50,686 bases of DNA. It comes from a virus. The notes below the pieces were generated by a model. That model was not told the DNA's origin, did not search any database, and saw only the letters and a list, made by a program, of their open reading frames with translations. The translations under genes and the position numbers were made by a program. Below are positions 548 to 19,794 of the stretch, piece after piece (position 1 is the stretch's first letter; the number at the start of each line of letters is the position of its first letter). Location: the IMG/VR virus record IMGVR_UViG_3300021401_000008, positions 1-50,686 of that record; one strand, written 5' to 3'.

Positions 548-3353
548 CTACCACCTCGCTAACTCCATTCTGTTTTCTAACTACTACCAACTTGGCATCT
601 GCTAGCTCAGAAAGAATTGCTGGATTGTGTGTAGTTAAAAGTATCGTGCCGAACCTCCCCACTATCTTCTTCAATCCTCTCGCAAAACTTCTAGCTGAGA
701 TAGCATCCAACCCATCTCCTGGCTCATCCAGAATTAATAGATTCGTCTTTGGTGCTGTCGACCGGACGGCGAAGGACGTAATCAACGAAGCCATCTTCAT
801 TTCACCTTCCGACTGATCCTTTACTTCCTCTCCACCATGAGCGTTAATTACTCTCACATCCGTCATACCTTCTTCGTCTACTGCAAAGCGAACCTGAATC
901 TCTCCTTGTGCAAATAACTCAGAATACTCTGCAGCTGATTGATTCAACTCTGGACAGATCTGTTCATTGAGATAAGCTGGTAGCCCGTTTCTCTGAAAGA
1001 CTGTCTGTGCATATTTCAGCACCTTGAGCCATTTACCGATCTTGTTCTTCTGTTGTGTTAGCTTCCCACCCCGTTCCTGGCAAGCTACTACTTTCTTCAA
1101 CAGACTGTCGATCAGCTGCTGTTGCTTTTGGTATTGCTCCCATTCGAATCTGAGCTTCTCCAACTCACTACTCAGCTTGGCTATCTTTATCTCCAGCTCT
1201 TCGTTCTCTTGCCATGCCTCTTTCTTCTCTTCTAGCTTACCAGCAGCCTCTGTAATTTTCATGTCCATCTCAGCGTAGCCATCCAGTTGCTTTCTCAAAG
1301 CTCTGGCAGCTTCCTCGATTGCTGGAATAGCAATCTTCATGAGCTTCTCGTCTATGATCTGCTCACAGACTGGACAAGTCCCTTCTAGCTTCTTGAATTT
1401 TTCTATTCTGTTCTCCAGTACCTTCAGCCGCTCACTCGTCGTTGATCTCTTCTTGATCAAATCCTTCTCAGCGGCATCGTACTTCCCAATCTCTCTTTCC
1501 AGCTTTGCAAACTGAGTCTCAGCTTCTGATTCCCAGACTCGTAACTCTTCTTTCTTCTCCAAAAGCTGAGCTTTCGTACGTTTGAAAATAACCTTCACAT
1601 CTCGGTTTACAGCCAAAATCTGTTTGGCATCGGATATTGTTGAAAGTAGGTTCTTTTCCTCTGTAGAAATCGATTGCAGCTTGTCACAAACTAACTCATA
1701 TCTCCGTTCGAAGTCCGATTTCTGGTCCCGTATCGCTTTCTCTGCCCGTTCAAACCGTTCCAGGTTCTGTAACTTGGCCAGAAACCCTTTCCGCTGTGAT
1801 TCAGTTCCCGTCAACATCAAATGGGAACTGGCTTGATCTATGTAAATTGCATTCGCTAGCGTCTCCCAAGTGTAGCCAGTTACCTGCTCAATCAGCTTCT
1901 GTGTGCTCTCTGGTCTGTTACCGGACTCGACTACTTCCCCACCCACTTTCAGCTTTAGCTCTTTTGGCTGACGTGCTCGTCTCAGATAACATTCTCTGTC
2001 TTGAGCATCCCTGAACCAAAGCCGCACATCACATAGCTCACCTTTTTTCGTACCTCTTCTCATCCAACCATCGTGCTTCTGTTGCTTGAAAGTCTGTCCA
2101 GAATGAGCGACAGCTATTGGCTGGAGATAACTAGATTTACCGGCACCGTTTGACCTTCCTTTCCAATCTCTATTCTCTCCAGCCACAACGCAGAGTCCCG
2201 GCTCGAATCTAATGGCAAGCTCTTTGTAACTGAGAAAGTTTCTAGCTTTAATGCTACTGAACTTGAGTTCACCAGACTCCCTCTGTAACCCTCCGACAAG
2301 CGCCAACTGCTCAACGAGATATTTTCTAATGGCTTTTTCATGTGTTCTCAATTCATCCGGCAAAGTTTCTTGTACAAAGACGCGTATCTTTTTCTCGTCT
2401 GGGAAGTCGAGCCGAATTTTGCCAGCTGCTGAGCCACTGCTTTCGATAAATTCAGGTACGACAACAATCTCAGCACCTGCATACTTTCTAACAGCTTCAA
2501 GTCGCGCTTTGTCAAGATTCTCTCTGACATGTTGCACTCCCTCGCAAGGAACCTTGATTCTGATCTTGGCTCCTTGCCAACTCTCTGGCTTCGCTTCTTC
2601 AAATCCTGGCCAACCTGGATCGTACCAACCTGGAATAGTAGAACGAATTCTCTTGAGCGTTTTCTTCTCGAAGTCAATCAGGATGTAACCTTTTCTTTGA
2701 TTTGCCTCGCCCCAATCGGTCGCGAACGGGCTACCCACATACCATACCTTCTCCGCCACTCTTTGCTGAAAGTGGATGTGCCCGCCGACACAATAAAGGT
2801 ACCTTCCTGGATACAAATCTTCAGGTGATACCACGTCCTTCGATTGCGAGGAAGACAATACATTGTAACGCGCCGATTGCAAGTCTGAGTGAAAAATAAG
2901 TACATCTGTCTCAGGTCTTGTACGTTTTGCCAGGTCATGTGCTTCTCTTTTAAGCAAAATTGGATTGCTGCGAAAAGGAAGGAATGCAACCCGATAGGCC
3001 CCTCCCACTTCCAGGAATCCAGGATCATCGAAAGCTGCTGCTCCGCCTTTACGAAGTACTGGAAGCCAGTTTTGTTTGTCGACATGCATTCCCACCCTAT
3101 CGTGATTGCCTAGATCAATACCGACAAGCAATCCAGCGTTCTCCCACTTACCAATCGTACGCAACCAGAAATTTACAACCCGGACGTCTACTGGATTGTA
3201 TGCGTGTTTCAAATCTCCGGCTAGTACGATAACCTTAAACCCATACTTGCTTTGTAGCTGTAGAATTTCTTCAGCTGCTTGCTTACAGAGATCTAGATTC
3301 TCGTAGTCTGCTTGCCAATCTGATGTGACTAGAACCTTCACAAACTCTCCCAA
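540..3353 (-). CDS. sbcCD: SbcD-SbcC (Mre11-Rad50) nuclease fused in one polypeptide
   Basis: This 937-residue protein joins two proteins that are usually separate. Residues about 5-230 are an Mre11/SbcD calcineurin-like phosphoesterase: motif I SDWQ (11-14), GDLKH (46-50), GNHD (82-85), H155 and GHIH (191-194). Residues about 362-937 are an SbcC/Rad50 SMC-like ATPase: Walker A GRSNGAGKSS (399-408), two long coiled-coil arms around a CPVC zinc hook (660-663), signature QSEGE (847-851), Walker B LLILDEP (872-878) and an H-loop at H909. Such complexes trim DNA ends and open hairpins during recombination; T4 gp47/gp46 are the separate phage counterparts. Motif I has Gln where the usual DxH has His, which may alter metal binding. 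It overlaps the neighbouring gene by 16 bases. Confidence 0.93.
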   Translation of the reverse strand: MGEFVKVLVTSDWQADYENLDLCKQAAEEILQLQSKYGFKVIVLAGDLKHAYNPVDVRVVNFWLRTIGKWENAGLLVGIDLGNHDRVGMHVDKQNWLPVLRKGGAAAFDDPGFLEVGGAYRVAFLPFRSNPILLKREAHDLAKRTRPETDVLIFHSDLQSARYNVLSSSQSKDVVSPEDLYPGRYLYCVGGHIHFQQRVAEKVWYVGSPFATDWGEANQRKGYILIDFEKKTLKRIRSTIPGWYDPGWPGFEEAKPESWQGAKIRIKVPCEGVQHVRENLDKARLEAVRKYAGAEIVVVPEFIESSGSAAGKIRLDFPDEKKIRVFVQETLPDELRTHEKAIRKYLVEQLALVGGLQRESGELKFSSIKARNFLSYKELAIRFEPGLCVVAGENRDWKGRSNGAGKSSYLQPIAVAHSGQTFKQQKHDGWMRRGTKKGELCDVRLWFRDAQDRECYLRRARQPKELKLKVGGEVVESGNRPESTQKLIEQVTGYTWETLANAIYIDQASSHLMLTGTESQRKGFLAKLQNLERFERAEKAIRDQKSDFERRYELVCDKLQSISTEEKNLLSTISDAKQILAVNRDVKVIFKRTKAQLLEKKEELRVWESEAETQFAKLEREIGKYDAAEKDLIKKRSTTSERLKVLENRIEKFKKLEGTCPVCEQIIDEKLMKIAIPAIEEAARALRKQLDGYAEMDMKITEAAGKLEEKKEAWQENEELEIKIAKLSSELEKLRFEWEQYQKQQQLIDSLLKKVVACQERGGKLTQQKNKIGKWLKVLKYAQTVFQRNGLPAYLNEQICPELNQSAAEYSELFAQGEIQVRFAVDEEGMTDVRVINAHGGEEVKDQSEGEMKMASLITSFAVRSTAPKTNLLILDEPGDGLDAISARSFARGLKKIVGRFGTILLTTHNPAILSELADAKLVVVRKQNGVSEVVDG

Positions 3354-4786: not shown

Positions 4787-5449
4787 CTATTTTCTTCTAA
4801 GATACCCACCCGGATTCCAAGTCATCAAAAACTTCTCACGTCTTCGATCTACCTCGAACTGTTCATTATACAAACTAAGAAACTCTTTTACCGCCCAACC
4901 TGGTCCATAACCGAAATTTAGAGGAGCGTCCACGTTCGTGTCCTCCACAATCAAATACTGACCTGATGTCACCAACCTCCAATACATCATCAACTCTTGA
5001 ATCACATGTGGCGTACTATGATCGTCATCTAGAATGACCATCACTTTCTTTCCATCTGTCCTGTTCTGGATCTCGTCACGTATCAATGGATTGACTGAAT
5101 CCCCGACGACGTAAGTAATCCGATCGTGTGGTGGCACAATCCCCAGCCGATTGTCAATGTCGACTGTAATGATCTGCCCGTTGCCAATCAAATCCAAAAC
5201 ATGAGCCATGAACAATGCTGAGGCTCCTGATGCTGTACCCATCTCTACTATCAAATCTGGCTTACACTCCCACAGAATTTCCTGGTAGATCCAGAGATCG
5301 AGCGGATTCTTCTGAATGAGATACTTACCACAATAGTTCGCATCCAACTGCACGACAACTTGATCGTCACCTTCTCCAATTCTCATCTGGAGCTGGCCCT
5401 TCGAGTACCAGAGACGATGAAAAGAATCGATCAACTCTTTCTCTTCCAT
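4787..5449 (-). CDS. CmcI-like SAM-dependent O-methyltransferase
   Basis: This 220-residue protein resembles the CmcI / rhamnosyl O-methyltransferase family. A Rossmann SAM-binding loop EMGTASGAS (69-77) is followed by VDID (96-99), an acidic metal-site stretch ILDDDHS (139-145) and a second acidic pair VEDTN (168-172). Relatives methylate small molecules or sugars, and no DNA substrate is known. In a phage it could modify a nucleotide, a glycan or a host metabolite; the substrate cannot be read from sequence. The ATG at 5449 shares one base with the upstream stop (TGATG) and has GGAG 6 bases before it. A GTG at 5452 is less likely. Confidence 0.8.
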   Translation of the reverse strand: MEEKELIDSFHRLWYSKGQLQMRIGEGDDQVVVQLDANYCGKYLIQKNPLDLWIYQEILWECKPDLIVEMGTASGASALFMAHVLDLIGNGQIITVDIDNRLGIVPPHDRITYVVGDSVNPLIRDEIQNRTDGKKVMVILDDDHSTPHVIQELMMYWRLVTSGQYLIVEDTNVDAPLNFGYGPGWAVKEFLSLYNEQFEVDRRREKFLMTWNPGGYLRRK

Positions 5450-5574
5450 CACTTACTCCCATGCTTTCTGTGCCACCAAACCAGCCTGTGTACCCCTTCG
5501 ACAAAACCAAACGACAGCACCAGAGCCAATACTGGTGCTAGTATCTTATGATTCAGAATCCAAGTCTCGATCAT
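5449..5574 (-). CDS. 41-residue single-span membrane protein
   Basis: This small frame opens directly after the (TNNGG) array and ends in a TGATG junction with the methyltransferase gene. The protein starts MIETWILNHK, has one hydrophobic helix (about residues 11-28, LAPVLALVLSFGFVEGVH) and ends in a basic tail (HRKHGSK), which suggests a cytoplasmic C-terminus. The last unit of the array, TGGGG, followed by ATAA, supplies the ribosome site. The tight coupling to the next gene and its position as the first product after the array support it being real. The function is unknown. Confidence 0.65.
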   Translation of the reverse strand: MIETWILNHKILAPVLALVLSFGFVEGVHRLVWWHRKHGSK

Positions 5575-5578
5575 TTAT

Positions 5579-5658
5579 CCCCACCTTACCCCACACTAGC
5601 AGACCTAACCCAACCACACCCGAGCTTACCAAACCTTGCCACACCTTACCTTGCCAAA
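5579..5658 (-). repeat. Degenerate pentanucleotide array 1, (TNNGG)16
   Basis: On the coding strand the gap between two genes reads stop codon, G, sixteen 5-base units of the form TNNGG, ATAA, then ATG. The sixteen units fill 80 bases with no phase slip. Departures are CAAGG (twice), TAAGC, TCTGC and TAGTG, each with one change. It is the shortest of three such arrays in the window (see 13225-13369 and 18722-18836). All three begin GTTTGG directly after a stop codon and end at the ribosome site of the next gene. The role is unknown. Confidence 0.93.
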
Positions 5659-5659
5659 C

Positions 5660-5923
5660 TCATTGCCCAGCTGCTATTACGGTCAACACCTGGGAAAAGG
5701 CTTCTGTCACTGACATCAACAGCCGACCGAATGTTCTCGCCTTGAACCGGAACTCTTCCTTCTGATCTTCTGGCAGTGAGTCGACGTAATCACGCAGCTG
5801 CTTCTCTGCTATCTGCATCGACATCTCACCAGAAGCCACGGCCACCCACAATTTCAAAACTACTTCCTGCTGTGACGTCGTCTTTTCAACTGCGATCTTG
5901 TCCTTGTCTGCTTTCGTTGCCAT
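5660..5923 (-). CDS. Hypothetical protein, 87 residues
   Basis: This is a mostly helical, charged protein with a Lys/Asp-rich N-terminus (MATKADKDKIAVEKTTSQQE) and a hydrophobic C-terminal helix (about residues 66-87, LLMSVTEAFSQVLTVIAAG). I do not recognise a family. It lies downstream of RecA and directly upstream of repeat array 1, whose first base follows its stop codon. An AAGGAG-like ribosome site precedes the ATG. It is probably transcribed with the recombination genes. Confidence 0.7.
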   Translation of the reverse strand: MATKADKDKIAVEKTTSQQEVVLKLWVAVASGEMSMQIAEKQLRDYVDSLPEDQKEEFRFKARTFGRLLMSVTEAFSQVLTVIAAGQ

Positions 5924-9058: not shown

Positions 9059-9949
9059 TTATACAACTTCCTTTTTCATTTCCTTTTGAAGTTTAATCTG
9101 AAACTGTTGGTTCTTCTGGCACCACTTCTCGACAAACTCTTCTGGTGGCTCACCAGCATACTCGACCATCACTCCCAGTCTGAATCCGGCTTTAGCTTCA
9201 GATTTCAACGGAACGACCCACTTTACTTCTGGCCACCATTTAGCTACGTAGACCAGAATCTCTTTCTCCATCAGCTGATTAAATTGCTTGTACGCTTCTA
9301 CCAGCTTCAATAGCTTGACGAAAACATATAGCGAATCATGCACTTCCATCGATGGCCGCTGGAGCAAATTGTATGTCTGTGGCTTAATCCCGATGATCGC
9401 CATCGCAATCAACATCAACTGATGAGCTGTTCCCTGAATTGGGCTGTTAACTGCTTGGTTTGCCCAGAATGTTGTTCTCGTCTCATCTCCAGCAATGGCA
9501 ATCTCTCTGACGAAACCAAACAAAGTTTCCACATAGGCATTGTCTTGTGCAAACTGATGCTGGTGCTCGATGAATTCTGCTACTCCAGAGAACCTCTTGA
9601 AATAGGCTTTCCACAGCTTGGCTACGTCTTCCTTCGACATGTTGAATGGCTCACCACGTTCCAAAGCCTCATTCAGCAAATGGTAGTACAGCGATTCTTC
9701 TGTTAACCCGTAAATGATTCCGAAGTGTAGCCCTTTGATTGCTGTTCTGAGAGGCCTGTCTTTCATGATCTTTGCAATCGGCTGCCCGGTTAACTCATGT
9801 CCGACTGATGCGTGGATATCTTCTCCCGATTGGATTAGCTCGATCAGCCTCTTGTCTTTTGACATCTGAGCCAGCACACGAATCTCTAACTGGCTGTGAT
9901 CTGCTCCAAGATAGACATCAAGATCGCCGAATTTGCTGACTAGACTCAT
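9059..9949 (-). CDS. polA: Family A DNA polymerase, C-terminal part (palm/fingers) of a split enzyme
   Basis: This 296-residue protein is only the catalytic end of a PolA-type polymerase. It starts just before motif A: GADHSQLEIR (15-24, catalytic D17). It then has the finger helix motif B with R68, K72, F76 and Y80 (RTAIKGLHFGIIYG), NSPIQGTA (168-175) and motif C EVHDS (202-206, catalytic D205). The exonuclease, thumb and first palm strands are missing and are encoded 1.1 kb upstream at 11044-12924. The ATG is in an ATGA overlap with the preceding gene, so the split is an established gene arrangement, not a chance stop. Motif C has Ser where bacterial PolA has Glu (HDE). Confidence 0.93.
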   Translation of the reverse strand: MSLVSKFGDLDVYLGADHSQLEIRVLAQMSKDKRLIELIQSGEDIHASVGHELTGQPIAKIMKDRPLRTAIKGLHFGIIYGLTEESLYYHLLNEALERGEPFNMSKEDVAKLWKAYFKRFSGVAEFIEHQHQFAQDNAYVETLFGFVREIAIAGDETRTTFWANQAVNSPIQGTAHQLMLIAMAIIGIKPQTYNLLQRPSMEVHDSLYVFVKLLKLVEAYKQFNQLMEKEILVYVAKWWPEVKWVVPLKSEAKAGFRLGVMVEYAGEPPEEFVEKWCQKNQQFQIKLQKEMKKEVV

Positions 9950-10149
9950 CTTGGATGTCCTGGAAAAGGATGAAACATTCCGGTCTGATTCTTTTCTTCT
10001 CTAGCTTTCTTTTCGGCTTCTTTCTTTTTACTGAATGGTCCAACTACATAATCATACTTTGGAAAATCTTCTGGCTCAGGATCTTTACTAGAAGAAAAAA
10101 CTTCATGATTCTCATATTGACCTTTAAGAACCCCTACCCAAAAACTCAT
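9946..10149 (-). CDS. Hypothetical protein, 67 residues
   Basis: This small protein lies between the two polymerase parts. Overlaps of four bases (ATGA) on both sides fix its ends. It begins MSFWVGVLKGQYENHEVF, has an aromatic strand-rich first half and a Lys/Glu helix (KKKEAEKKAREEKNQ), and ends FHPFPGHPR. I recognise no family. Confidence 0.72.
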   Translation of the reverse strand: MSFWVGVLKGQYENHEVFSSSKDPEPEDFPKYDYVVGPFSKKKEAEKKAREEKNQTGMFHPFPGHPR

Positions 10150-10628
10150 TTTACTTCTCCATCCAACAAACTAATCGCATCTTCAAACGTATCTGGCTGA
10201 CTCCCACCCGGCCAACTTCTATGCCCAAGTCTTTCTGTAAACTCTTGTACCGACTCGATGGGTAAATGAAAAGCCGCACACATCGCTGTATATCGATCGT
10301 GCGCTACCCGGGATATCTCTCTATCTGGATGACAATAAGCAACCACCTCCAACGAATGCATCAGATGGCTGTAGAAATGTTGGGTACAGAATTCTAATTC
10401 TTTAGCTGTTGGACCTTTCTCCAAAATCAGCTCCGGCTCTTTCGTCATAAACTCTCTGACGTTATCTGGATTCCCTGGCTTGAACGCTAGCCCGCGAAGC
10501 CACCGTGTGATTGTCTTGACTCCCGGCGTACAGTGCGTATCTGGCCCACGCAGCCCAAGAATCAACGTCGACTGCATCCGAATTGGAATCTGGACCAACC
10601 AATCTTGCAACACGCTAGTATTTCTCAT
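10146..10628 (-). CDS. Conserved phage-type hypothetical protein
   Basis: This 160-residue protein contains QIPIRMQSTLILGLRGPDTH near the N-terminus and a helical segment EFCTQHFYSHLMHSLEVVAY in the second half, followed by HPDREISRVAHDRY. From memory, proteins with this layout (an LRG.D segment, then an HWYSH.MHA.EVVAY.HP-like helix) occur in other phages next to nucleotide or replication genes, with no known function. The His-rich helix could form a metal site, but that is only a suggestion. ATGA overlaps at both ends place it in the operon between dCTP deaminase and the polymerase C-part. Confidence 0.75.
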   Translation of the reverse strand: MRNTSVLQDWLVQIPIRMQSTLILGLRGPDTHCTPGVKTITRWLRGLAFKPGNPDNVREFMTKEPELILEKGPTAKELEFCTQHFYSHLMHSLEVVAYCHPDREISRVAHDRYTAMCAAFHLPIESVQEFTERLGHRSWPGGSQPDTFEDAISLLDGEVK

Positions 10629-11047
10629 AGCTTTGACTCCGTAATCCCTCTCTGATCTGTGTACATCCCTCTGTACGGCTCACAAGGACTGGTCGTCTTG
10701 GCGAAGATCAAATGAGCAAAGCGCTCTCCAATCGCCTCTTGTGGTGGAACCATAAACGAGAGCATCTCCAGCGTCAAATTTCCCTTGAACCCGGCATCTA
10801 CGATCGTTGGTGGAAGAAAGAATCCTTTCCTTGCCCACGAGCTTCTCAACTCGACAAAGGCCATCAAATCATCTGGGAGCTCAAGTACTTCTCTTGTACA
10901 ACCCAATGAGAATATACCGACCATCGGCTTAACTTCGTCCAAAATCAAGTCGATCCCATTCTGTTGAAACTGATCATCTCTAACTGGAATTATTTTTAGC
11001 TTTCCGGTCTCGATGTACCACTTCAGATCTCGTCCACTGAGGATCAT
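10625..11047 (-). CDS. dcd: dCTP deaminase / dUTPase-fold protein
   Basis: This 140-residue protein begins MILSGRDLKWYI, like Dcd enzymes, and carries the conserved ELRSSWARKG (about 66-75) and IVDAGFKGNLTLE (about 82-94) motifs of the dCTP deaminase/dUTPase trimer family. These enzymes make dUMP or dUTP from dCTP or clear dUTP, feeding thymidylate synthesis. It is shorter than typical Dcd (about 175-195 residues), ending soon after the YRGMYTDQ segment. The ATG at 11047 is in an ATGA overlap with the polymerase N-part stop and has GGAG 9-10 bases upstream. It is the first of three genes between the two polymerase parts. Confidence 0.87.
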   Translation of the reverse strand: MILSGRDLKWYIETGKLKIIPVRDDQFQQNGIDLILDEVKPMVGIFSLGCTREVLELPDDLMAFVELRSSWARKGFFLPPTIVDAGFKGNLTLEMLSFMVPPQEAIGERFAHLIFAKTTSPCEPYRGMYTDQRGITESKL

Positions 11048-12924
11048 TGCTGTTCTCTCCATTCTTTATATAGGTCTCGCCACCTCAAGTCTGATACCAA
11101 TAAACATTCTATTTCTTCAGCACCGTGGATGTTTTGCAAATTTACAATGCCTTTTGACTTATCCGAAGGCTCTCCTTTCTTTTTCACCTTCTCTCCACCC
11201 GATCTGAGCCGACAAGTGATCGTACCAGTTAGCCACCACTTCGTCCGGACCCGTCCACCGTGTAATGTAGCCGATCGACGGTAAGCATCGAGATACGTCG
11301 ATTTCTTTTTTGCTATCTTCCTAAACTCGGTCAACCGTTTTGGAAATGGATGGAAGTCTGCTAGTAAGGCCATCGTCTCTTTGTTTGTTGATCTAGGAAA
11401 ATCTTTCTTCCACTCGGCATCCAGATGCTTGCCCAGCTTCAATTCGTCGTAAATGATCTTGACTACCTGTTGTGGTGAATTTGGATTGAACTTATATCCA
11501 GCCAGCTTCTGTAACTCTTTTTTCAGCGAGGCTATCTTGATCGGTAGCCAGGTATCTAGTAGATCGGCATGCTGAAAGTCTAGTAACGGACCACGCTCCA
11601 ACTCCATCTTCGCCAGCACTGGAGCTACTAAAATGAGAACTTTTAGCAGCGCCTCGTTTACCTTCCCTTTGTTGCTCCTCTGAATTCTCTTCGTCAAATC
11701 ACAGTCCGCGCCATTGTAGACCCGGATGATCTTCATCGGCACGGTCCAGAAGTTTACCAGCCCGGTCTTCTCGTCCTTGTAATGATCTAGAATATCTTTG
11801 TACCCGGCGAACTCTCTGAACCTGATATCAGCTGTCGCTTCTAACCCGAAGGCTCTACGACCGGAGAATCTCAAATACTCCGAAAGCATCGTATCGTGTA
11901 CGAAGCCTTTGACCTTAACACCCCATAGCTTCTCTAACTTCCAGACATCGTAGACTCCGTTCTGAAATGCTTTTTTGATCTTCGGATCTGTCAGAAGATC
12001 TGATACGAAATGAAATTTTGCTTGCTGTTCGTCTGGTGTATTTTTCAGATCGTGATGGTCAAAGAAAACTCCTCTTGATTTTCCTTTCTCCCATGAAAAG
12101 CCAACATACACAATTACATTCTTTCCTTCAGCGTTTGTTCCATCCTCTATATCTACAGATACAACAATTCCTTTTGCAGCTGCCACCCTTATCGGCTCAT
12201 CAAGCCCAGTCTTCAAAGCACGAGCACCCAATGTCACATACTCTTGACTTTGAATGTAGGAAAATTTCCCAGTCGCACCTTTTGCCTTCTCTACTGCTAT
12301 CGCCAACGCTTCCCGGAACTCCTTAATCTTTGATCTCGGCGCACCTCGTAAGAAGTAGCTGGGATGATAAGTAAGAATGACCCAAGCCTTCAGCTTTTCT
12401 GAATAGAAAGTCTTCTGATCCTTCCGGTACTCGCCTTTGAGAAGAGCTTTCGCAGCCACCTGTCCGAAGACAATATGTACTTTAGTCTGACCTTGCACCT
12501 TCTCCAAAGCTTCTTCTGTATAGATCGAGCAAGCGTGTAGCTCTTCCTTCGTTGGATTATGGAACTCCCACTGCTCGAACTCGTTCTCTGAGACTGTAGC
12601 GCAGCGGACTACATTCTGTATATCGCACATCTCTCTCGTTAACCCAACCGACGCTGCATGCTCCCAAAGAAACTTACCAGCTGGACCCACTAGTTCTTTC
12701 CCTAATCTGTTTTCTTCTGAGCCTGGATTCTGAGCCCAGATCATGATTGACTTACCCTGTAGCTTGTCCAGATTCTTGATCTTCTTCAGCCCTTTGATCT
12801 TATCCAAAGGACAGAAACCACAGCCACGATTCTGATCTTTCCTTGGCTTTCGCTCACCCTTTTCGGGCACAGGATCGAAAGTCTTTTTGTTCTCGTCGAA
12901 CTGCAACACGTTTTGAAATTTCAT
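11044..12924 (-). CDS. polA: Family A DNA polymerase, N-terminal part: UDG-like and 3'-5' exonuclease domains
   Basis: This 626-residue protein has three parts. Residues about 30-215 are a family-4/5 uracil-DNA-glycosylase-like domain with four candidate iron-sulphur Cys (C35, C38, C108, C132), an AQNPGSEE motif (64-71) and HPSY (187-190). Residues about 250-415 are a DEDDy 3'-5' exonuclease (D258, E260, N322/D326, D344, Y403/D407). Residues about 425-626 are thumb and the start of the palm, with a TGT..CRL segment (566-573) and NLQNI (595-599). It stops before motif A, which begins the separate gene at 9059-9949. UDG-PolA fusion is known from SPO1-like phages; the split is unusual. The ATG is in an ATGA overlap. 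Confidence 0.92.
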   Translation of the reverse strand: MKFQNVLQFDENKKTFDPVPEKGERKPRKDQNRGCGFCPLDKIKGLKKIKNLDKLQGKSIMIWAQNPGSEENRLGKELVGPAGKFLWEHAASVGLTREMCDIQNVVRCATVSENEFEQWEFHNPTKEELHACSIYTEEALEKVQGQTKVHIVFGQVAAKALLKGEYRKDQKTFYSEKLKAWVILTYHPSYFLRGAPRSKIKEFREALAIAVEKAKGATGKFSYIQSQEYVTLGARALKTGLDEPIRVAAAKGIVVSVDIEDGTNAEGKNVIVYVGFSWEKGKSRGVFFDHHDLKNTPDEQQAKFHFVSDLLTDPKIKKAFQNGVYDVWKLEKLWGVKVKGFVHDTMLSEYLRFSGRRAFGLEATADIRFREFAGYKDILDHYKDEKTGLVNFWTVPMKIIRVYNGADCDLTKRIQRSNKGKVNEALLKVLILVAPVLAKMELERGPLLDFQHADLLDTWLPIKIASLKKELQKLAGYKFNPNSPQQVVKIIYDELKLGKHLDAEWKKDFPRSTNKETMALLADFHPFPKRLTEFRKIAKKKSTYLDAYRRSATLHGGRVRTKWWLTGTITCRLRSGGEKVKKKGEPSDKSKGIVNLQNIHGAEEIECLLVSDLRWRDLYKEWREQQ

Positions 12925-13217
12925 GGAACTCGCCAAACAACATCCTCTATAGTTCCTAGCCACTCAATTGCTTTTGCTTCCGTCATCGTTCTTCCAAGTG
13001 GACCGTAAAAATCCGTATCATGTACGACGCACCAAAGTTCTTTAGGGCTCAGACCTCCACGTTCTGCTAAGCGTTCTAGAGTCTGAGAATGATTATGCTG
13101 AGCTTGCTCTTCATGTCCCTTAAGCAACTCACGTGGAAACGAAACCGGATACGGTGTGCGATTTCGACGAGCTGCGTGAAACTCTTCAGTTTGTCCAAAT
13201 AGAATTGGATAACTCAT
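12921..13217 (-). CDS. Hypothetical protein, 98 residues, first gene after array 2
   Basis: The protein begins MSYPILFGQTEEFHAARRNR and has a central ERLAERGGLSPKELWCVVHD segment, a helix-turn pattern seen in many small phage proteins, and a C-terminal LGRTMTEAKAIEWL segment. I recognise no named family. Its translation begins 7 bases after the last unit of the 29-unit (TNNGG) array, and its stop overlaps the polymerase N-part by four bases (ATGA). Whatever the array controls would therefore also affect the polymerase. Confidence 0.72.
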   Translation of the reverse strand: MSYPILFGQTEEFHAARRNRTPYPVSFPRELLKGHEEQAQHNHSQTLERLAERGGLSPKELWCVVHDTDFYGPLGRTMTEAKAIEWLGTIEDVVWRVP

Positions 13218-13224
13218 TTCTTCA

Positions 13225-13369
13225 CCCTACCTCACCCGACCTTAGCCTACCAGACATTACATTACCAGACCTCACCTCGCCTCACCCTACCTTACCAGAC
13301 CATGCCGCAGCTCACCAGACATCACCGCACCATACATCACCTTAGCTTACCAAACCCTACCATGCCAAA
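13225..13369 (-). repeat. Degenerate pentanucleotide array 2, (TNNGG)29
   Basis: This is the largest of the three arrays: 29 units of TNNGG on the coding strand fill 145 bases with no insertion or deletion. It is preceded by a single G after the clamp gene stop and followed by TGAAGAA and an ATG. Exceptions carry one change each: C at position 1 (CATGG twice, CGAGG), T at position 4 (TGATG twice, TAATG twice) or C at position 5 (TAAGC, TGAGC, TAGGC). The last unit, TAGGG, serves as ribosome site for the 98-residue gene. On the + strand it reads as a CCNNA repeat. Confidence 0.95.
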
Positions 13370-13370
13370 C

Positions 13371-14468
13371 TTATTTACCAATCTGTCTCGCCACCATCAT
13401 CTCCACCCCACCACCGGATAGAAGATAAGGTGTATTCTTCTGTTCGTCCACTCGTACTTTGATCCACTCACCATTCTGGGCCATGTAATCAACAACTGCT
13501 AAAGCTAACTCCAGTGGCCATCTGATCGTTCCTTCTACTGTCCCGTTCTCAATCTCCATCTGCTCTTCGAACTTTCCCTGCTGAACTCGTACTGATGCTT
13601 TGACTACTCCTTGATCGATCGCCATCTCCACAATCCAGTCTTCCCTCTTCACTCCACCCAAGTAGCTGGCCAATCTGGCTAGCATCTTTGAGAGCTTCTC
13701 GGCTGGCAGTCTGGTGAGTAGTGGCCATGTCCGTCCTTTCTGTATCTTCTCCACTACGTCCTTCTTTGGAAACGATTTCTGAGCTACTGCCGAAATCGTT
13801 CCTTCTATGAATCCACAACCACAATCCAGCATGACTCGATCGTTCTCCACTCCAACTGCTTGCACCAGACTGTCACCTAATAGCGGAATGATGCCGACTG
13901 GAAATGGAATTCTCAATGCATCTTCTTGGTCTCGTACTCCAACGAATAGTGAAATCAGATTCGTCGATAGCACCAACTTGCCACCGATGTAGACACAATT
14001 TAGATGCGGCAACGCTGGATCGGCTGTCGAACAGTGATTCGAAGCCAGTAGCAGTTTTCTCAAGCCCTCTGATAGCTTTATCTCTTTCGACTTGTCTCGA
14101 TCTCGCCAGACTCCGTAGCCACTCACTGGCTCTTTTCTCATCGAGAAGTCTGCCTTACGACTGCCCTGTCTGATCAACCATTTATCTTCTGTCAAAGCCA
14201 TCTTGAAATTGCCCTTCCAGCTTTTTCCGGCTTGAATGTAGGCTGTAAATAATCCTTTGTCGACAAAAAATGGTCCCGGCGTCAATGTATCGGTCAAAGG
14301 AACCCGAACCACACCGGTCACCGTCGATGAAAGTGACATCTCGATTGCATTCTTTTTTGTCAGTACTCGGACAAAGTCTGATGAAGGAATCCCGGCTCGT
14401 TGTGGAACAAGACTCAGCACATCCACAGCTGTGATCATTGCTTTCTTATCGGCTTCTACCCAGCTCAT
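13371..14468 (-). CDS. dnaN: DNA polymerase sliding clamp (beta-clamp-like)
   Basis: This 365-residue protein is read as a beta-type sliding clamp. It has three similar beta-rich segments, a GKLVLSTNLISLFVGV strand pair in the middle, and a C-terminus (YLLSGGGVEMMVAR) like the end of DnaN, where the last strand closes the ring interface. The length equals that of bacterial DnaN. Overall similarity is low, as expected for phage clamps. The clamp loader at 3.7-4.8 kb is its likely partner. The ATG at 14468 is in an ATGA overlap with the 59-residue gene; a longer in-frame start at 14543 would overlap that gene heavily and is rejected. Confidence 0.75.
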   Translation of the reverse strand: MSWVEADKKAMITAVDVLSLVPQRAGIPSSDFVRVLTKKNAIEMSLSSTVTGVVRVPLTDTLTPGPFFVDKGLFTAYIQAGKSWKGNFKMALTEDKWLIRQGSRKADFSMRKEPVSGYGVWRDRDKSKEIKLSEGLRKLLLASNHCSTADPALPHLNCVYIGGKLVLSTNLISLFVGVRDQEDALRIPFPVGIIPLLGDSLVQAVGVENDRVMLDCGCGFIEGTISAVAQKSFPKKDVVEKIQKGRTWPLLTRLPAEKLSKMLARLASYLGGVKREDWIVEMAIDQGVVKASVRVQQGKFEEQMEIENGTVEGTIRWPLELALAVVDYMAQNGEWIKVRVDEQKNTPYLLSGGGVEMMVARQIGK

Positions 14469-14644
14469 CGCTTCCTTCTCAGGACATAATCTATAAACAA
14501 AGAATTCACAAATTTTGGAATCCAGATAGCTTTTCCTTCGCACTGTATCAACTTAAAGAAAATCTCCCCACGGATTCCAAACATTCTAACCAAGGCCTCT
14601 TTAGAATGTTCCAAGTCGCTTATCTCTAATTGTTTTCTTCTCAT
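14465..14644 (-). CDS. Hypothetical protein, 59 residues
   Basis: ATGA overlaps at both ends (14644 with the gene upstream, 14465 with the clamp) define this gene. The protein begins MRRKQLEISDLEHSKEALVR and ends LFIDYVLRRKR. It is basic, with a central aromatic segment (GIRGEIFFKLIQCEG). No family is recognised. Tight coupling to the clamp suggests co-translation. Confidence 0.68.
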   Translation of the reverse strand: MRRKQLEISDLEHSKEALVRMFGIRGEIFFKLIQCEGKAIWIPKFVNSLFIDYVLRRKR

Positions 14645-14850
14645 GCTGATTGCTCCACTAACTCCACGTAAGGCTTTCCCGACGGTGGAGCCCATCCAGT
14701 AGCGAAGAAAACTTTTCCATGCCATCGGATCTTGGCTTTCATCGTCTGTCCCCACATAAGAAAAGCATCTGGCATCTCAGCTGATAAGTCTTCTATCATA
14801 TCTTTCTGTGTTACCAGCAAATTCCAATCGCTGACTGACATCTTCATCAT
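14641..14850 (-). CDS. Hypothetical protein, 69 residues
   Basis: The start at 14850 overlaps the GTP cyclohydrolase stop (ATGATGA), with GGAG 3-4 bases before the first ATG. A second ATG at 14847 may be used instead. The protein has DWNLLVTQKDMIEDLSAEMP and a compact Gly/Pro/Trp-rich end (FFATGWAPPSGKPYVELVE). No family is recognised. It sits between the DNA-modification pair and the clamp. Confidence 0.68.
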   Translation of the reverse strand: MMKMSVSDWNLLVTQKDMIEDLSAEMPDAFLMWGQTMKAKIRWHGKVFFATGWAPPSGKPYVELVEQSA

Positions 14851-15491
14851 CGTTCTCCTCTCACAGCTGCCAGAAACTCAGCCCGTGCTGTTGCTTCTTT
14901 GAAAGCTCCCTCCAACGCCGTCGTCGTTGTCCAAGCTTCTTTCTTCACTCCACGCATCTCCATGCACAAATGACGACCACGAATTAAACAAGCGGCGCCT
15001 TTCGGCTGGAGACCTTTCTGGAGTAACTGAGCGATCTCTGCTGTCGTATCTTCCTGGAGAGCAGGCTTCTTGGCTACTAACTCAGCCAATCGAGCCAGCT
15101 TAGACAACCCCAACACTTTTTTCTTTGGGATGTAAGCGATCCAAATCCGCATCATCACGGGCAAAAAATGATGTGGGCACATCGACCACAACTGGATCGG
15201 ACCCACTGTGATCATCTCATCTGATTTAGCCGGAAATGTTTTGCTAAGGATTTCGGTTAGTTTGGTTCCATCATCAAACAGCCCATCGAAAATTTCTGCA
15301 TAGGCTCTAGCTACTCTTTCTGGTGTATCTTCGAAGTTCGGACCGTAACGTCTAACCTTCCCATGAGAGACTCGCTGCAAACTTTGTAAGATCTCAGCGA
15401 TACTTGCGGCTACTTCCCTTTTGAACATAAATACAGCATTCTCTCGTACTTGCTCTTCGTTCTTTCTCTTCCAATGATTCTTCGTTATCAC
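14847..15491 (-). CDS. folE: GTP cyclohydrolase I
   Basis: This 214-residue protein has the full FolE core: the SMCPHHFLP zinc/catalytic motif (103-111, with C105, H107 and H108), IPKKKVLGLSKL (121-132) and the second zinc Cys with RGV (C176 in HLCMEMRGV) followed by TTTT. FolE turns GTP into dihydroneopterin triphosphate, the first step of folate and of preQ0/7-deazaguanine synthesis. Its overlap with a DpdA-like gene favours the DNA-modification role. I chose GTG at 15491 because it forms a GTGA overlap with the upstream stop, has GGAG 8 bases before it, and gives the normal family length. QueD, QueE and QueC are not in this window. Confidence 0.93.
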   Translation of the reverse strand: MITKNHWKRKNEEQVRENAVFMFKREVAASIAEILQSLQRVSHGKVRRYGPNFEDTPERVARAYAEIFDGLFDDGTKLTEILSKTFPAKSDEMITVGPIQLWSMCPHHFLPVMMRIWIAYIPKKKVLGLSKLARLAELVAKKPALQEDTTAEIAQLLQKGLQPKGAACLIRGRHLCMEMRGVKKEAWTTTTALEGAFKEATARAEFLAAVRGER

Positions 15492-16528
15492 AGTATTGGC
15501 TCCATCTTCATGTATCTGTCTCTGAAAGTGTCCTTCCACTGATTCATGTGTGCAAAGATCCATCCGTTGTAGACGAAACGATAGGCCAACGATCTCTGTA
15601 ACAACTCGAAGTCGAACCCATTCTTCTCCACCTGCTGCCTTATCGACTTCATTGCTGCTGGTGAAAGCTCTGTCGTTGATCTCGTCGAGCTTTTCAGCCC
15701 ACCCGTCAGCGAAACATGCTGAGCTGTCATTGAGCCCCTGTCCGGCTCCAATGCATAAATCGCACCGTACGACGCCGTCCTGGACCAGCTGCTCGAGTCG
15801 ACTGAATGCCAAGGATATGCGTAAGCGAGTGCAATAGATGTTACAGCAAATCCGTGCAGTTTCACTTTATATCCCTCTACAGCCCGGAACACCTGATCGA
15901 GATAGAACCTGGTCTTCTTGTAGTCTGATTTCCTTCTGGCCAAACTCGAGATACCGATTCTGGTATAACCGGCGTCGAGATACTTCTTCAGCCAGTCCAG
16001 CGAATCATCGCCGTGATAGACTGGCACCGGCTTCAGCCCATGTTCTTCCAGAATCTTGGTGACGCCCCAGACCACCCTAACGTCTTGCGTCCAGTCGAAC
16101 GTAACGCACCACGAAATATCTTTGCTGTGCTTTTTGACAAAGCGGACATACAGCTCGATCGTCTTCTCTCTAAGCTTCTCTATATTGCCGACGTTCTTGT
16201 TCTTGAGAGCGAAAATATGGAATGAGAAAGCCCCGGAATCTAACATGATTGGATTGCCGTGAGCTACGTTTACTTCGAAAGACTCTAGCGCTCTCGAAGA
16301 CCAATAGATGGCTTCTGGATCTATATAGACGAAGGAAAAGCAGCGATACCGTACACCGGAGCATTTCAAGAACTCTTCTTCCAGCTCCTTTGCGTGCACA
16401 ACTGTGTGAGATAGATGAATTCTCGGCAACTCATCTGTCTGGGGTACGATTTTTGGATGTGGACCGTTCGCTAGAACTAACGTTTCTCTTTTTCTTGGTG
16501 TTGCTCTGTTCTTTGCTCCGCCCATCAT
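15488..16528 (-). CDS. dpdA: DpdA-like guanine transglycosylase for 7-deazaguanine DNA modification
   Basis: This 346-residue protein resembles phage DpdA, a relative of tRNA-guanine transglycosylase that swaps guanine in DNA for a 7-deazaguanine. Visible motifs are LDSGAFS (96-102, like TDSGGF of TGT), TFDWTQDV (143-150), VYHGDD (170-175), HGFAV (225-229) and SVDSSSWSR (242-250), with D244 as a candidate nucleophile. Modified phage DNA resists many restriction enzymes. It is directly followed by FolE, which makes the first pathway intermediate. The ATG at 16528 is in an ATGA overlap with the gene before it and has GGAG 9 bases upstream. Confidence 0.85.
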   Translation of the reverse strand: MMGGAKNRATPRKRETLVLANGPHPKIVPQTDELPRIHLSHTVVHAKELEEEFLKCSGVRYRCFSFVYIDPEAIYWSSRALESFEVNVAHGNPIMLDSGAFSFHIFALKNKNVGNIEKLREKTIELYVRFVKKHSKDISWCVTFDWTQDVRVVWGVTKILEEHGLKPVPVYHGDDSLDWLKKYLDAGYTRIGISSLARRKSDYKKTRFYLDQVFRAVEGYKVKLHGFAVTSIALAYAYPWHSVDSSSWSRTASYGAIYALEPDRGSMTAQHVSLTGGLKSSTRSTTELSPAAMKSIRQQVEKNGFDFELLQRSLAYRFVYNGWIFAHMNQWKDTFRDRYMKMEPIL

Positions 16529-16785
16529 ACTAGTTTGCTCCATTCTGGATGTGCCATCATGCAAAGTATGCCATTATACTCTACCAGCTTACCTGACTTC
16601 CGTAACGCTCGCAAAAGGTTCTGTGGATTGGCTCCGATTCGTTTGGCCCATTTGTTAAACTCTTCCAATGTCCTTGCTGTGCTCAGAAACTCGAACGCTT
16701 TCTGCCTTGCTGTTCCCTTTCTGAAAGTCTGGGCACACTTGGCGGTCTGGACAGAACGTTGAGCACTCGAGCGTCGTCTTGTCAT
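16525..16785 (-). CDS. Small helix-turn-helix-like protein overlapping a zinc-ribbon gene
   Basis: The C-terminal half (AFEFLSTARTLEEFNKWAKR, then NPQNLLRALRKSGKLVEYNG) looks like a small winged-helix or HTH fold. The stop is in an ATGA overlap with dpdA, so the end of this frame is surely used. The start is not settled. An ATG at 16785 has a near-perfect AAGGAGGT site only 3 bases away but lies 131 bases inside the zinc-ribbon gene, far more overlap than elsewhere here. Alternatively the frame is reached by a +1 frameshift from the zinc-ribbon gene, making one zinc-ribbon/HTH protein. Confidence 0.6.
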   Translation of the reverse strand: MTRRRSSAQRSVQTAKCAQTFRKGTARQKAFEFLSTARTLEEFNKWAKRIGANPQNLLRALRKSGKLVEYNGILCMMAHPEWSKLV

Positions 16786-17547: not shown

Positions 17548-18467
17548 GGCAACCTGAATAGCTTATGCCTCTCTGCTAACAGCTCTTTCAACTCGTACTG
17601 ACCCAAGAACCCGTAAATCTCTCTTCTGTGTCTCTCAGCCCACTCACCATCCCTTCCTGGTCTGGTAGCTACTCTCTTCAGTAAGTCTACCAAAACACTA
17701 CTTGTCTCTTTCGTCCATACCTCGCTTCTCGGATCTGTGATGATCTTTGCCATCTGTCTTTCTTTGAAAACTCTACGCCAGTGCTCATCGTATTTCTTTA
17801 CTAAAGCAGAACCCGATGCATAAAAACCCACCACTCTCAATCCTTGCTTCCATAACTTGACTGCCGTCTTTAGCCCAACTCCGGGCAGCCCTTTCAAACC
17901 ATCACCTGGATCTCCGGCCATCGCCCTGATATCTAAAAAAGCATTCATCGGAGCCCCAAGCCATCTCTCTACATCCTTCACTTTCAAAGGCTTCTGATCT
18001 AAATCGTGCCAAGCCCATACGTTGTTATCCAATAGCTGAAACAGATCTCGATCTTTTGAGAAAATTCGAACTTCATGCCCATGTCTGGCTAAGTTACTAG
18101 CCACCATACCGATCATATCGTCCGCTTCTACTTCATCTAGCTGGAGGACCCATAATCCGAGCAATCGCAAAATCGGAATCAGCTGATGTATCTGCCACTG
18201 CATCTTCTCATACTCAGGATTGAAAGCCCTATTTGCTTTGTAGGCTGGATACGCTTTATGCCTCCATGTTTTCTTTTCTCCGTCCCAGCAAATGATGATC
18301 CTAGCCTCTGGCAGCTTTTTGTTAATCTTGAGCAGCTCAGTCAGAAACCCGTAGAACATACCGGTCGGCTTCCCACCTGAACTCAATTTCAAATGGGCGA
18401 AGTGATGTCTATACGCACACCACTTTCCGTCGATAATTACAATTTGCTTAGTCACTGCTCTTTTCAC
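17544..18467 (-). CDS. 5'-3' exonuclease / flap endonuclease (PolA N-terminal domain type)
   Basis: This 307-residue protein is a FEN-type nuclease like T5 D15 or the PolA 5' domain. Acidic metal-site residues fall in IIDGKWCAYR (11-20), ICWDGEKKTWR (about 59-69), DEVEADDMIG and FSKDRDLFQL. A helix-hairpin-helix follows at GDPGDGLKGLPGVGLKTA. It removes RNA primers and 5' flaps, a role missing from the phage polymerase. The start is probably GTG at 18467 (or GTG at 18455); both overlap the preceding stop. The -35 of the sigma promoter overlaps its stop codon. Confidence 0.9.
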   Translation of the reverse strand: MKRAVTKQIVIIDGKWCAYRHHFAHLKLSSGGKPTGMFYGFLTELLKINKKLPEARIIICWDGEKKTWRHKAYPAYKANRAFNPEYEKMQWQIHQLIPILRLLGLWVLQLDEVEADDMIGMVASNLARHGHEVRIFSKDRDLFQLLDNNVWAWHDLDQKPLKVKDVERWLGAPMNAFLDIRAMAGDPGDGLKGLPGVGLKTAVKLWKQGLRVVGFYASGSALVKKYDEHWRRVFKERQMAKIITDPRSEVWTKETSSVLVDLLKRVATRPGRDGEWAERHRREIYGFLGQYELKELLAERHKLFRLP

Positions 18468-18714
18468 CTGGCATCCAGAATTTTACATTTAGTAGACTAC
18501 CAACCATAGAAGTACCTTCGAACTCTTTTCTAGTCAGCTCAAAGAAGCCTCTCTTCCAACGAGCTAGCGTAATCCGAGTTCCTTCTTCGCACTCAGCCAG
18601 TATCTTCCCTTGTAGCTCTGGTGTCAATTTTCCTTCTAGATCTGCTCTTTCTTTCCCGGCCCCATCAAAGACTGCCAACGAGCCGTCTGTAAATAAGTAC
18701 ACGTCCTTTATCAT
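18448..18714 (-). CDS. Hypothetical protein, 88 residues, first gene after array 3
   Basis: The protein begins MIKDVYLFTDGSLAVFDGAG, followed by a Glu/Lys-rich helix and a strand-rich end (TRITLARWKRGFFELTRKEF). I know no family. Its ATG follows the last unit of array 3 plus AGAAAAA, and that unit makes a TAAGGAGA ribosome site. It overlaps the exonuclease gene by about 20 bases. Confidence 0.72.
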   Translation of the reverse strand: MIKDVYLFTDGSLAVFDGAGKERADLEGKLTPELQGKILAECEEGTRITLARWKRGFFELTRKEFEGTSMVGSLLNVKFWMPGEKSSD

Positions 18715-18721
18715 TTTTTCT

Positions 18722-18836
18722 CCTTACCTCACCTTACCAAACATGACCCAACCTTAGCCAACTGTACCACACCACACCAAACCTTACCATACACCACCTT
18801 GCCTAACCACACCACAGCTCACCACGCCGCACCAAA
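18722..18836 (-). repeat. Degenerate pentanucleotide array 3, (TNNGG)23
   Basis: Twenty-three TNNGG units on the coding strand fill 115 bases with no phase slip. They lie between the primase stop (TGA then G) and the spacer AGAAAAA before the next ATG. Single changes are CGTGG, CAAGG (position 1), TGGTG, TCATG (T at position 4), TACAG (A at position 4), TGAGC and TTGGC (position 5). Arrays 1, 2 and 3 share the opening GTTTGG and the TAAGG/TTTGG unit types, but their unit order differs, so they are not recent copies of one block. Confidence 0.95.
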
Positions 18837-18837
18837 C

Positions 18838-19794
18838 TCATCTGTCTCTCATCAGTGATTTTATTCTCATGCGCAGCAGTGGTGTTATCTCTTTTCTAGC
18901 TGCCAGAAGTTCCCTAATCTCTGAGTCATGCATCTCATCTGCTTGCTGCTCAGGCCAAGGCCAGACCATACTGACCTTCTTTACCAACGGCTGTAAGTTA
19001 TCGGCAGCAGCCAAATAGCCCTTCATACCGATTACATCTGGATCAACGAAGAGAACCACTTCGTCAAATTGTTTCAGCTGGTTTGATTGGATCGCTGTAA
19101 TCGCATTTCCCATCGTCGCCGAAGAGACCATCTTATACTCCGTCGCTCTCTCTATTGCCAGCGCTTTCGGTATCCCTTCCGAGACTACTACAATCTTCGT
19201 ACCCATCTCGTATTTCTCGGGATGAACGTTATATGCGCATTTGTTCCCAACTGAATTCTCATACTGCAAGAATCTCTGCCCCGTCCAGTCTCTCCCAACC
19301 ATACCAGCCAACATATCACCATAACGGACTGGAAAAATGATCATGTGATGAAACTTGTCATCTTGCACCGTTGCACCGATCTCATGCGTTCTAAGCTGTC
19401 TAGGCGTGATACCTCTTTTCCGGACATACTGCCTAGCTCTTCCGAATAATGGATCGTTGTCTGTCACGTCTTTCAGCTTTTCAAAGCCTACTGGAAAATC
19501 TACTGGATCTGGTCTCGTTCTGGTCTTTTGTGTGAAAGCTTCTGCTCGTATCTCTTCGAAGCTATCTGAACCGAGCTGTCTTAGGATATCCAGTAGTACC
19601 TTTCTGGAACTCCAACCACAGCGAAAGCAATGACCCAATCCGGACTTGATATTAAATCCGAGCTTAAACTCGAAATCGATCCCACGATTTCTCTCCGGAC
19701 AGAACAAACAACAGATCTTGAATTCGTCTGGCTCTGTCGAATGCTCTCTGACTTCGACACCTTTCAAAGTCATCTGTGTAAAGAAATCGATCAA
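18838..19794 (-). CDS. dnaG: DNA primase with zinc ribbon and TOPRIM domain
   Basis: This 318-residue primase has a zinc ribbon (C29 and C32, then C56 and C59), a linker, and a TOPRIM domain with VVSEGIPKA (203-211, E206) and FVDPD (249-253, D251 and D253). Such enzymes lay down RNA primers; the partner helicase is probably the DnaB-like protein at 23.5-24.9 kb. The length is typical of compact phage primases. The best start is TTG at 19794, with GAGGAG 8 bases upstream, because no ATG fits. Its stop codon is followed at once by array 3. Confidence 0.9.
   Translation of the reverse strand: MIDFFTQMTLKGVEVREHSTEPDEFKICCLFCPERNRGIDFEFKLGFNIKSGLGHCFRCGWSSRKVLLDILRQLGSDSFEEIRAEAFTQKTRTRPDPVDFPVGFEKLKDVTDNDPLFGRARQYVRKRGITPRQLRTHEIGATVQDDKFHHMIIFPVRYGDMLAGMVGRDWTGQRFLQYENSVGNKCAYNVHPEKYEMGTKIVVVSEGIPKALAIERATEYKMVSSATMGNAITAIQSNQLKQFDEVVLFVDPDVIGMKGYLAAADNLQPLVKKVSMVWPWPEQQADEMHDSEIRELLAARKEITPLLRMRIKSLMRDR

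What the first reader, a model, noticed from the sequence alone, without database searches (positions are those of the whole stretch)
13218..13370. Perfectly phased degenerate (TNNGG)29 array filling an intergenic gap
Seen directly: on the coding strand the gap is stop, G, 29 units of TNNGG, TGAAGAA, ATG, with no slip in 145 bases. The same architecture occurs at 5575-5659 (16 units) and 18715-18837 (23 units). Simple drift from a tandem repeat would leave indels and spread changes over all positions, but here phase is absolute. I know of no described phage element with a fixed triplet every five bases over 80-145 bases. Selection on a 5-base period implies a repeating reader of RNA or DNA.
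Basis: partly seen in the sequence, partly recalled or inferred. Interest (0 to 1): 0.95.

Follow-up and report, generated by a model that had tools for sequence, protein, structure and literature searches.

The report
VIPR-type guide-RNA arrays between phage genes
Three gaps between replication genes of this phage are filled with five-letter repeats (GGT plus two free letters) of the kind that a CRISPR-like system called VIPR, described in a 2026 preprint, uses as programmable guides against other phages; here the repeats are unusually long and no partner protein gene is visible in the 50 kb record.

Summary
On the minus strand three intergenic gaps are filled by exactly phased pentamers, best written GGYNN: 46 of 68 units fit TNNGG strictly and 22 differ at one fixed position. 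Scores are 27-51; 100 shuffles never exceed 7.8.

The thing is real, widespread, and already described as a class. Searching blind, I found the same arrays in many phages beside an uncharacterised gene family (phrog_4652) whose predicted structure matches Csm3/Cas7 RAMP proteins. Of 80 such genes fetched by protein sequence alone, 74 lie near a pentamer array scoring above every shuffled control. A late literature search showed this to be VIPR (PMC13142463): RNAs of GGY/NN repeats whose NN pairs read DNA with a one-base skip. I reproduced that rule with a Pseudomonas array.

Two of the window's gaps also hold arrays in relatives, with unrelated NN content and other lengths. This lineage is unusual: arrays reach 51 units, are intercistronic, show no 3' tail, and no vipr gene was found in its records, none known to be complete.

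Verdict: VIPR-type repeat tracts, a new variant of a known kind. Whether this phage uses them as guides or decoys is open.

The parts
13222..13370 (-). Array A: 29 TNNGG-consensus units (13225-13369), GGYNN register, filling the gap between the clamp-like gene and a 98-aa ORF
5575..5659 (-). Array C: 16 units (5579-5658), opens TGA-GTTTGG, ends just before an ATG at 5572-5574
18715..18837 (-). Array B: 23 units (18722-18836), opens TGA-GTTTGG, ends in an AGGAG-like ribosome-binding site before an ATG at 18714
13371..14543 (-). Upstream neighbour of array A: weak match to a phage DNA polymerase processivity factor (clamp)
   Evidence: phrog_947, E 5.5e-5
12921..13217 (-). Downstream neighbour of array A: 98-aa ORF of unknown function
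5660..5923 (-). Upstream neighbour of array C: 87-aa ORF of unknown function
18838..19794 (-). Upstream neighbour of array B: DNA primase
   Evidence: phrog_47, E 6.7e-31
18448..18714 (-). Downstream neighbour of array B: 88-aa ORF of unknown function

Best explanation
The arrays are repeat tracts of VIPR-type guide RNAs (vrRNAs). Steps: (1) The tract is transcribed on the minus strand with its neighbouring genes (inferred). (2) A small Cas7/RAMP-fold protein (Vipr) assembles along the RNA, one subunit per five bases, holding GGY; this keeps the phase exact (fold shown here for relatives; RNA co-purification from the preprint; one subunit per repeat is inference; a Vipr in trans or on an unsequenced part of this genome is inference). 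(3) The NN pairs pair with double-stranded DNA as NNxNNx, one target base skipped per pair, usually the codon wobble base (preprint; reproduced here with a Pseudomonas array, not with the window's arrays). (4) Binding silences a gene of a competing phage or satellite (preprint; not shown here). Since only NN carries the message, NN turns over between relatives while GGY and phase do not (shown). In this lineage the tracts have 11-51 units against 9-16 in the preprint, fill intercistronic gaps and show no 3' tail.
For: Degenerate GGYNN arrays occur with a Cas7-fold gene in 30 of 41 array contigs against 1 of 50 simple-repeat contigs. Reverse test by protein alone: 74 of 80 genes in bacteria and archaea lie near a pentamer array above every shuffled control. 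Fold: pLDDT 92, Foldseek probability 1.00 to Csm3/Cas7 chains. Same GGY/NN unit as published vrRNAs. Skip rule reproduced: 12 of 299 Pseudomonas genomes against 0 for the reversed pattern, with the six best hits all encoding [LP]A[CS][DE]IARH[LI]EQ in antisense. Window arrays share unit, single-position variants, strand-with-genes layout and NN turnover in relatives.
Against: No Vipr in the window or its relatives' records. Arrays longer than published vrRNAs and without a tail before the next gene. No target identified: parts of arrays B and C have no exact skip-1 match among viral contigs, decoded long arrays have no match in phage records, no excess in about 5.3 Mb of loaded DNA except the one-family lead for array A. 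A second Pseudomonas array gave only 4 weak hits against 1 in its control.
Confidence: 0.72

Rival explanations
1. Orphan decoys: this lineage lacks Vipr and keeps long GGYNN tracts in its mRNAs to soak up the Vipr protein of competing phages or prophages, an RNA anti-VIPR comparable in idea to RNA anti-CRISPRs.
For: No Vipr found in 50 kb here, 55 kb of G095, or a 105 kb phage with similar arrays. Tracts are unusually long. No target found. RNA anti-CRISPRs exist (abstract of PMC10651486).
Against: The records may be incomplete, so absence of Vipr is not shown. NN content is replaced rapidly, which a decoy does not need. A direct target lead for array A, though weak.
Confidence: 0.15
2. Cis-acting element: the tract is a binding platform in the mRNA that regulates or couples translation of the two flanking genes, as TRAP binds 11 NAG triplets spaced by 2-3 bases in Bacillus (from general knowledge).
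For: Arrays fill tight gaps between same-strand genes, begin at the stop codon and end in the ribosome-binding site; two positions are conserved in three relatives.
Against: Unit number varies from 11 to 31 in the same gap; in other phages the arrays stand apart from coding genes, with hairpins and own promoters; TRAP's triplets are not GGY.
Confidence: 0.08
3. Neutral remains of an expanded tandem repeat.
For: Tandem Repeats Finder reports weak arrays there.
Against: Variation is concentrated at two of five positions; no indels; no excess of internal duplications across arrays; linked to one protein family across bacteria and archaea.
Confidence: 0.02

Closest known systems
VIPR (Viral Interference Programmable Repeat: Vipr protein plus vrRNA), PMC13142463 / bioRxiv 2026.04.26.720920
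   Same: GGY/NN pentamer repeats in exact phase, hypervariable NN, phage-borne, intergenic, on the gene strand; array-bearing relatives carry the RAMP-fold gene, and the preprint's model phage SUSP1 belongs to the clade reached here.
   Different: In the window's lineage no vipr gene was found, tracts have up to 51 units instead of 9-16, they are squeezed between replication genes, and no 3' tail is seen.
Class 1 CRISPR-Cas (type III Csm3/Cas7)
   Same: RAMP fold of the linked protein family; repeated protein subunits along an RNA.
   Different: No cas operon or repeat-spacer array in the window; period 5 instead of 6; guide letters not contiguous.
TIGR-Tas (PMC12045711)
   Same: Phage-borne array of short guide units with a small protein.
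   [quoted passage not shown] nothing there about a RAMP protein or a 5-base code.
RNA anti-CRISPRs, Racrs (PMC10651486)
   Same: A phage RNA that mimics the guide of a RAMP system; model for the decoy rival.
   Different: From its abstract only: Racrs mimic CRISPR repeats and occur as solitary units, not GGYNN tracts.

Membership tests
VIPR | RNA tract of alternating GGY/NN (YNNGG) repeats with variable NN | tested here: met
VIPR | vipr (RAMP homologue) gene in the locus | tested here: inconclusive
   none found in the window by profile, iterated profile or profile-profile search; the record is not known to be complete; found beside arrays in related systems
VIPR | 9-16 repeats per vrRNA (type II figures of the preprint) | tested here: not met
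   16, 23 and 29 units here, up to 51 in L248; the preprint also mentions variable and staggered arrays, so this is not defining for all types
VIPR | conserved structured 3' tail after the repeats | tested here: not met
   the next start codon follows the tract within about 12 bases; the preprint describes the tail for the types it characterised, and whether all types have one is not stated in its main text
VIPR | NN pairs match a target with the 1-nt skip rule | tested here: inconclusive
   reproduced for a Pseudomonas array; for the window one single-family lead and otherwise no match
VIPR | Vipr binds the RNA and represses target DNA | not testable with these tools
   needs experiment
CRISPR-Cas class 1 | cas gene operon with repeat-spacer array | tested here: not met
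   no RAMP gene found, no cas family among the window proteins scanned, no repeat-spacer layout

The most novel reading that the evidence does not exclude
This phage lineage carries long, tail-less, intercistronic GGYNN tracts without its own Vipr, a use of the code that the preprint's main text does not describe: either guides that borrow a Vipr supplied by another element or the host, or RNA decoys that disarm the Vipr of competitors (an anti-VIPR).
Probability: 0.3. Interest if true: 0.8.

Novelty: new variant of a known kind. Interest (0 to 1): 0.58.

Why it matters
VIPR is proposed as an ancestor of CRISPR and as a programmable DNA-binding system with a code unlike other guides, so each new architecture helps define it. 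Arrays standing between core replication genes, reaching 51 units and lacking a visible Vipr would extend the system to guide-only or decoy use. The independent linkage found here (74 of 80 RAMP genes from bacteria and archaea beside a pentamer array, without using arrays to find them) and the reproduction of the skip rule in Pseudomonas support the preprint from separate data. Array positions kept between relatives while NN is replaced give a ready test of how guides are swapped.

Tried and rejected
Contiguous reading of NN and a three-base skip within own contigs: no excess over shuffled units; skips 0-3 for the window and L121 arrays against about 4.4 Mb: none. Tandem-duplication origin: rejected. 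A window-encoded Vipr: profile search, an iterated 125-member profile without filters, and profile-profile comparison of the window's minus-strand ORFs of 90 aa or more; best probability 1%. NN composition as codon positions 1-2: sense codons fit better than antisense or uniform, but independent base frequencies fit better still, so not evidence. Decoded peptides of the long arrays against phage records: no match. Array A core match to a small phage protein (EIAELEAIL): six contigs, shuffled control none, but one protein family and flanks near chance, so a lead only. No megablast relative among named phages. Partner gene phrog_5926 follows the RAMP gene in four phages checked but did not emerge as a general neighbour. 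A first target pattern in two Pseudomonas genomes found nothing. Profile search of the RAMP family with too diverse an alignment failed for lack of conserved stretches.

Full report
OBSERVATION. The three gaps were read directly. On the minus strand each begins at the stop codon of the upstream gene and runs in exact 5-base phase to just before the next ATG. The natural register is GGYNN, starting with the last A of the stop codon. An in-phase scan scores them 50.8, 27.1 and 40.2; the maximum over 100 shuffles of the window is 7.8. Perfect phase is right; 29 strict units is a consensus.

SAME GAPS IN RELATIVES. L121 (78% identical clamp-like protein) has arrays in the gaps of A and C, scored as 11 and 14 units, with other NN content, both containing the opening AGTTTGG. 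L248 has four arrays of 31, 26, 28 and 51 units; by alignment of the flanks three of them lie in the gaps of A and C, and the 51-unit one lies between two genes that abut in the window near 3341. Position, phase and GGY are kept while NN and length change. Array B's gap is not covered by these records.

WHAT SITS BESIDE SUCH ARRAYS ELSEWHERE. A scan of viral contigs for six consecutive GGTNN units returned at least 120 contigs. Many hold several long degenerate arrays; others hold simple microsatellites. Reading four of them showed one kind of protein gene next to the arrays, ending in a GxGDxRPxxGRF-like motif. A profile of it hit 32 of the loci. Over whole records it is in 30 of 41 degenerate-array contigs and 1 of 50 simple-repeat contigs (Fisher p = 8e-14). 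An entry in my notebook says 31 of 41; 30 is the recount. The family is phrog_4652, unknown function, with no Pfam match above cut-off and no PADLOC match. AlphaFold2 gave mean pLDDT 92, and Foldseek against the PDB placed it with Csm3 and type VII Cas7 subunits at probability 1.00. TM-scores are about 0.5, so this is fold kinship, not close relation.

REVERSE TEST. Because the first set was chosen by its arrays, I searched bacterial and archaeal genomes with the protein alone: 88 relatives, 80 kept, from many phyla. A scan for any fixed triplet at period 5 within 2.5 kb found a best array above the highest shuffled control in 74 of 80, nearly all GGC or GGT, on the gene's strand and usually within a few hundred bases. 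Named phages agree: wV8 (GGT, four arrays; the record's own DR_4 repeats lie between them), LESphi2 and Trine (GGC), phiHSIC (GCA instead of GGY).

HOW THE ARRAYS EVOLVE. In 144 arrays, NN words of three units recur within an array 4 times against 10.0 +/- 3.2 expected, and words of four never, so slippage does not make them. In Felixounaviruses and close kin the array flanks are conserved while the content is unrelated, identical, or shared over half. Four genomes without the RAMP gene at this place still keep one or two arrays there, so arrays can persist where the gene is missing.

KNOWN SYSTEM. A literature search then found PMC13142463 (bioRxiv, April 2026): VIPR, a RAMP protein (Vipr) proposed to predate CRISPR, with vrRNAs of 9-16 YNNGG repeats whose NN pairs recognise double-stranded DNA with one skipped base per pair, used by phages against satellites and prophages. 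SUSP1, its model, is in the clade I had reached. The work up to one search was done without it. I checked its code: an array beside the RAMP gene in Pseudomonas juntendi (L188), read as NNxNNx, matches 12 of 299 Pseudomonas genomes at up to 3 mismatches, with none for the reversed pattern; the six hits with at most 2 mismatches all encode, in antisense, [LP]A[CS][DE]IARH[LI]EQ, so the skipped bases are wobble positions, as the preprint reports. A second array of the same locus gave 4 hits, all at 3 mismatches, against 1 for its control, so not every array has a target in that set.

THE WINDOW. Its arrays meet the sequence definition of vrRNA repeat tracts. It departs in three ways. No Vipr was found, nor in nine more distantly related records up to 117 kb, nor in a 105 kb phage with similar arrays. 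Tracts are long: median 26 units in this lineage against 14 in Vipr-linked contigs (one-sided Mann-Whitney p = 0.001, on tracts that are not independent). There is no tail before the next gene. None of these records is known to be complete, so absence is not shown. Targets: decoding array A with the one-base skip gives an open, helix-like peptide; ten units match EIAELEAIL in a small phage protein in six contigs and the shuffled control matches none, but it is one family and the rest of the array does not follow. Parts of B and C have no exact match. I treat the target as unknown.

SURROUNDINGS. The window's genes near the arrays are a phage replication set: clamp-like protein, DNA polymerase in pieces, RecA/UvsX-like recombinase, single-strand binding protein, clamp loader, primase, helicases and a 5'-3' exonuclease, all on the arrays' strand. 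No tRNA and no Rfam family is in the window.

JUDGEMENT. Shown: real, phased, positionally conserved, NN-replaced arrays; a class-wide tie to a Cas7-fold protein; the skip rule in one relative. Inferred: that these tracts are read by a Vipr and act as guides. Open: own guide, borrowed guide, or decoy.

Noticed in passing
window 14847-16564 (minus): GTP cyclohydrolase I (14847-15812) next to a queuine tRNA-ribosyltransferase-like protein (15488-16564): suggests 7-deazaguanine modification of the phage DNA or tRNA.
   Followed up: no
window 9059-12963 (minus): DNA polymerase appears split: 11044-12963 and 9059-9949 both match family A polymerase of SPO1-like and other phages, with 160-aa and 145-aa ORFs between them.
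   Followed up: no
window 4787-5452 (minus): A CmcI/rhamnosyl O-methyltransferase-like protein downstream of array C, unusual among replication genes.
   Followed up: no
L248:17302-17556; window about 3341: A 51-unit GGYNN array (255 bases) stands between two genes that abut in the window, a clean gain or loss of a whole array.
   Followed up: partly
L126:6633-6891 (Listonella phage phiHSIC): Three arrays beside the RAMP gene use GCANN instead of GGYNN, each followed by a hairpin; a changed fixed triplet might allow a test of which protein residues read it.
   Followed up: partly
L157-L160 (Felixounavirus records): Records lacking the RAMP gene at this locus still keep one or two arrays in the same place.
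   Followed up: partly
L123:6594-7034, L124:6579-7070, L127:6569-7027, L125:6585-7388: phrog_5926 (unknown function) follows the RAMP gene directly in four phages; probably an accessory gene such as the preprint's vap genes.
   Followed up: partly
window 13222-13370, units 7-16 of array A; L241-L246: Ten consecutive NN pairs match, with one-base skip, the codons for EIAELEAIL in a small phage protein in six contigs; shuffled order matches none. One protein family, so a lead only.
   Followed up: partly
L129:569-6932 (G006, 105 kb phage contig): Three intergenic arrays of 14-16 units, each starting right after a TGA or TAA, in a long contig with no detectable RAMP gene.
   Followed up: partly
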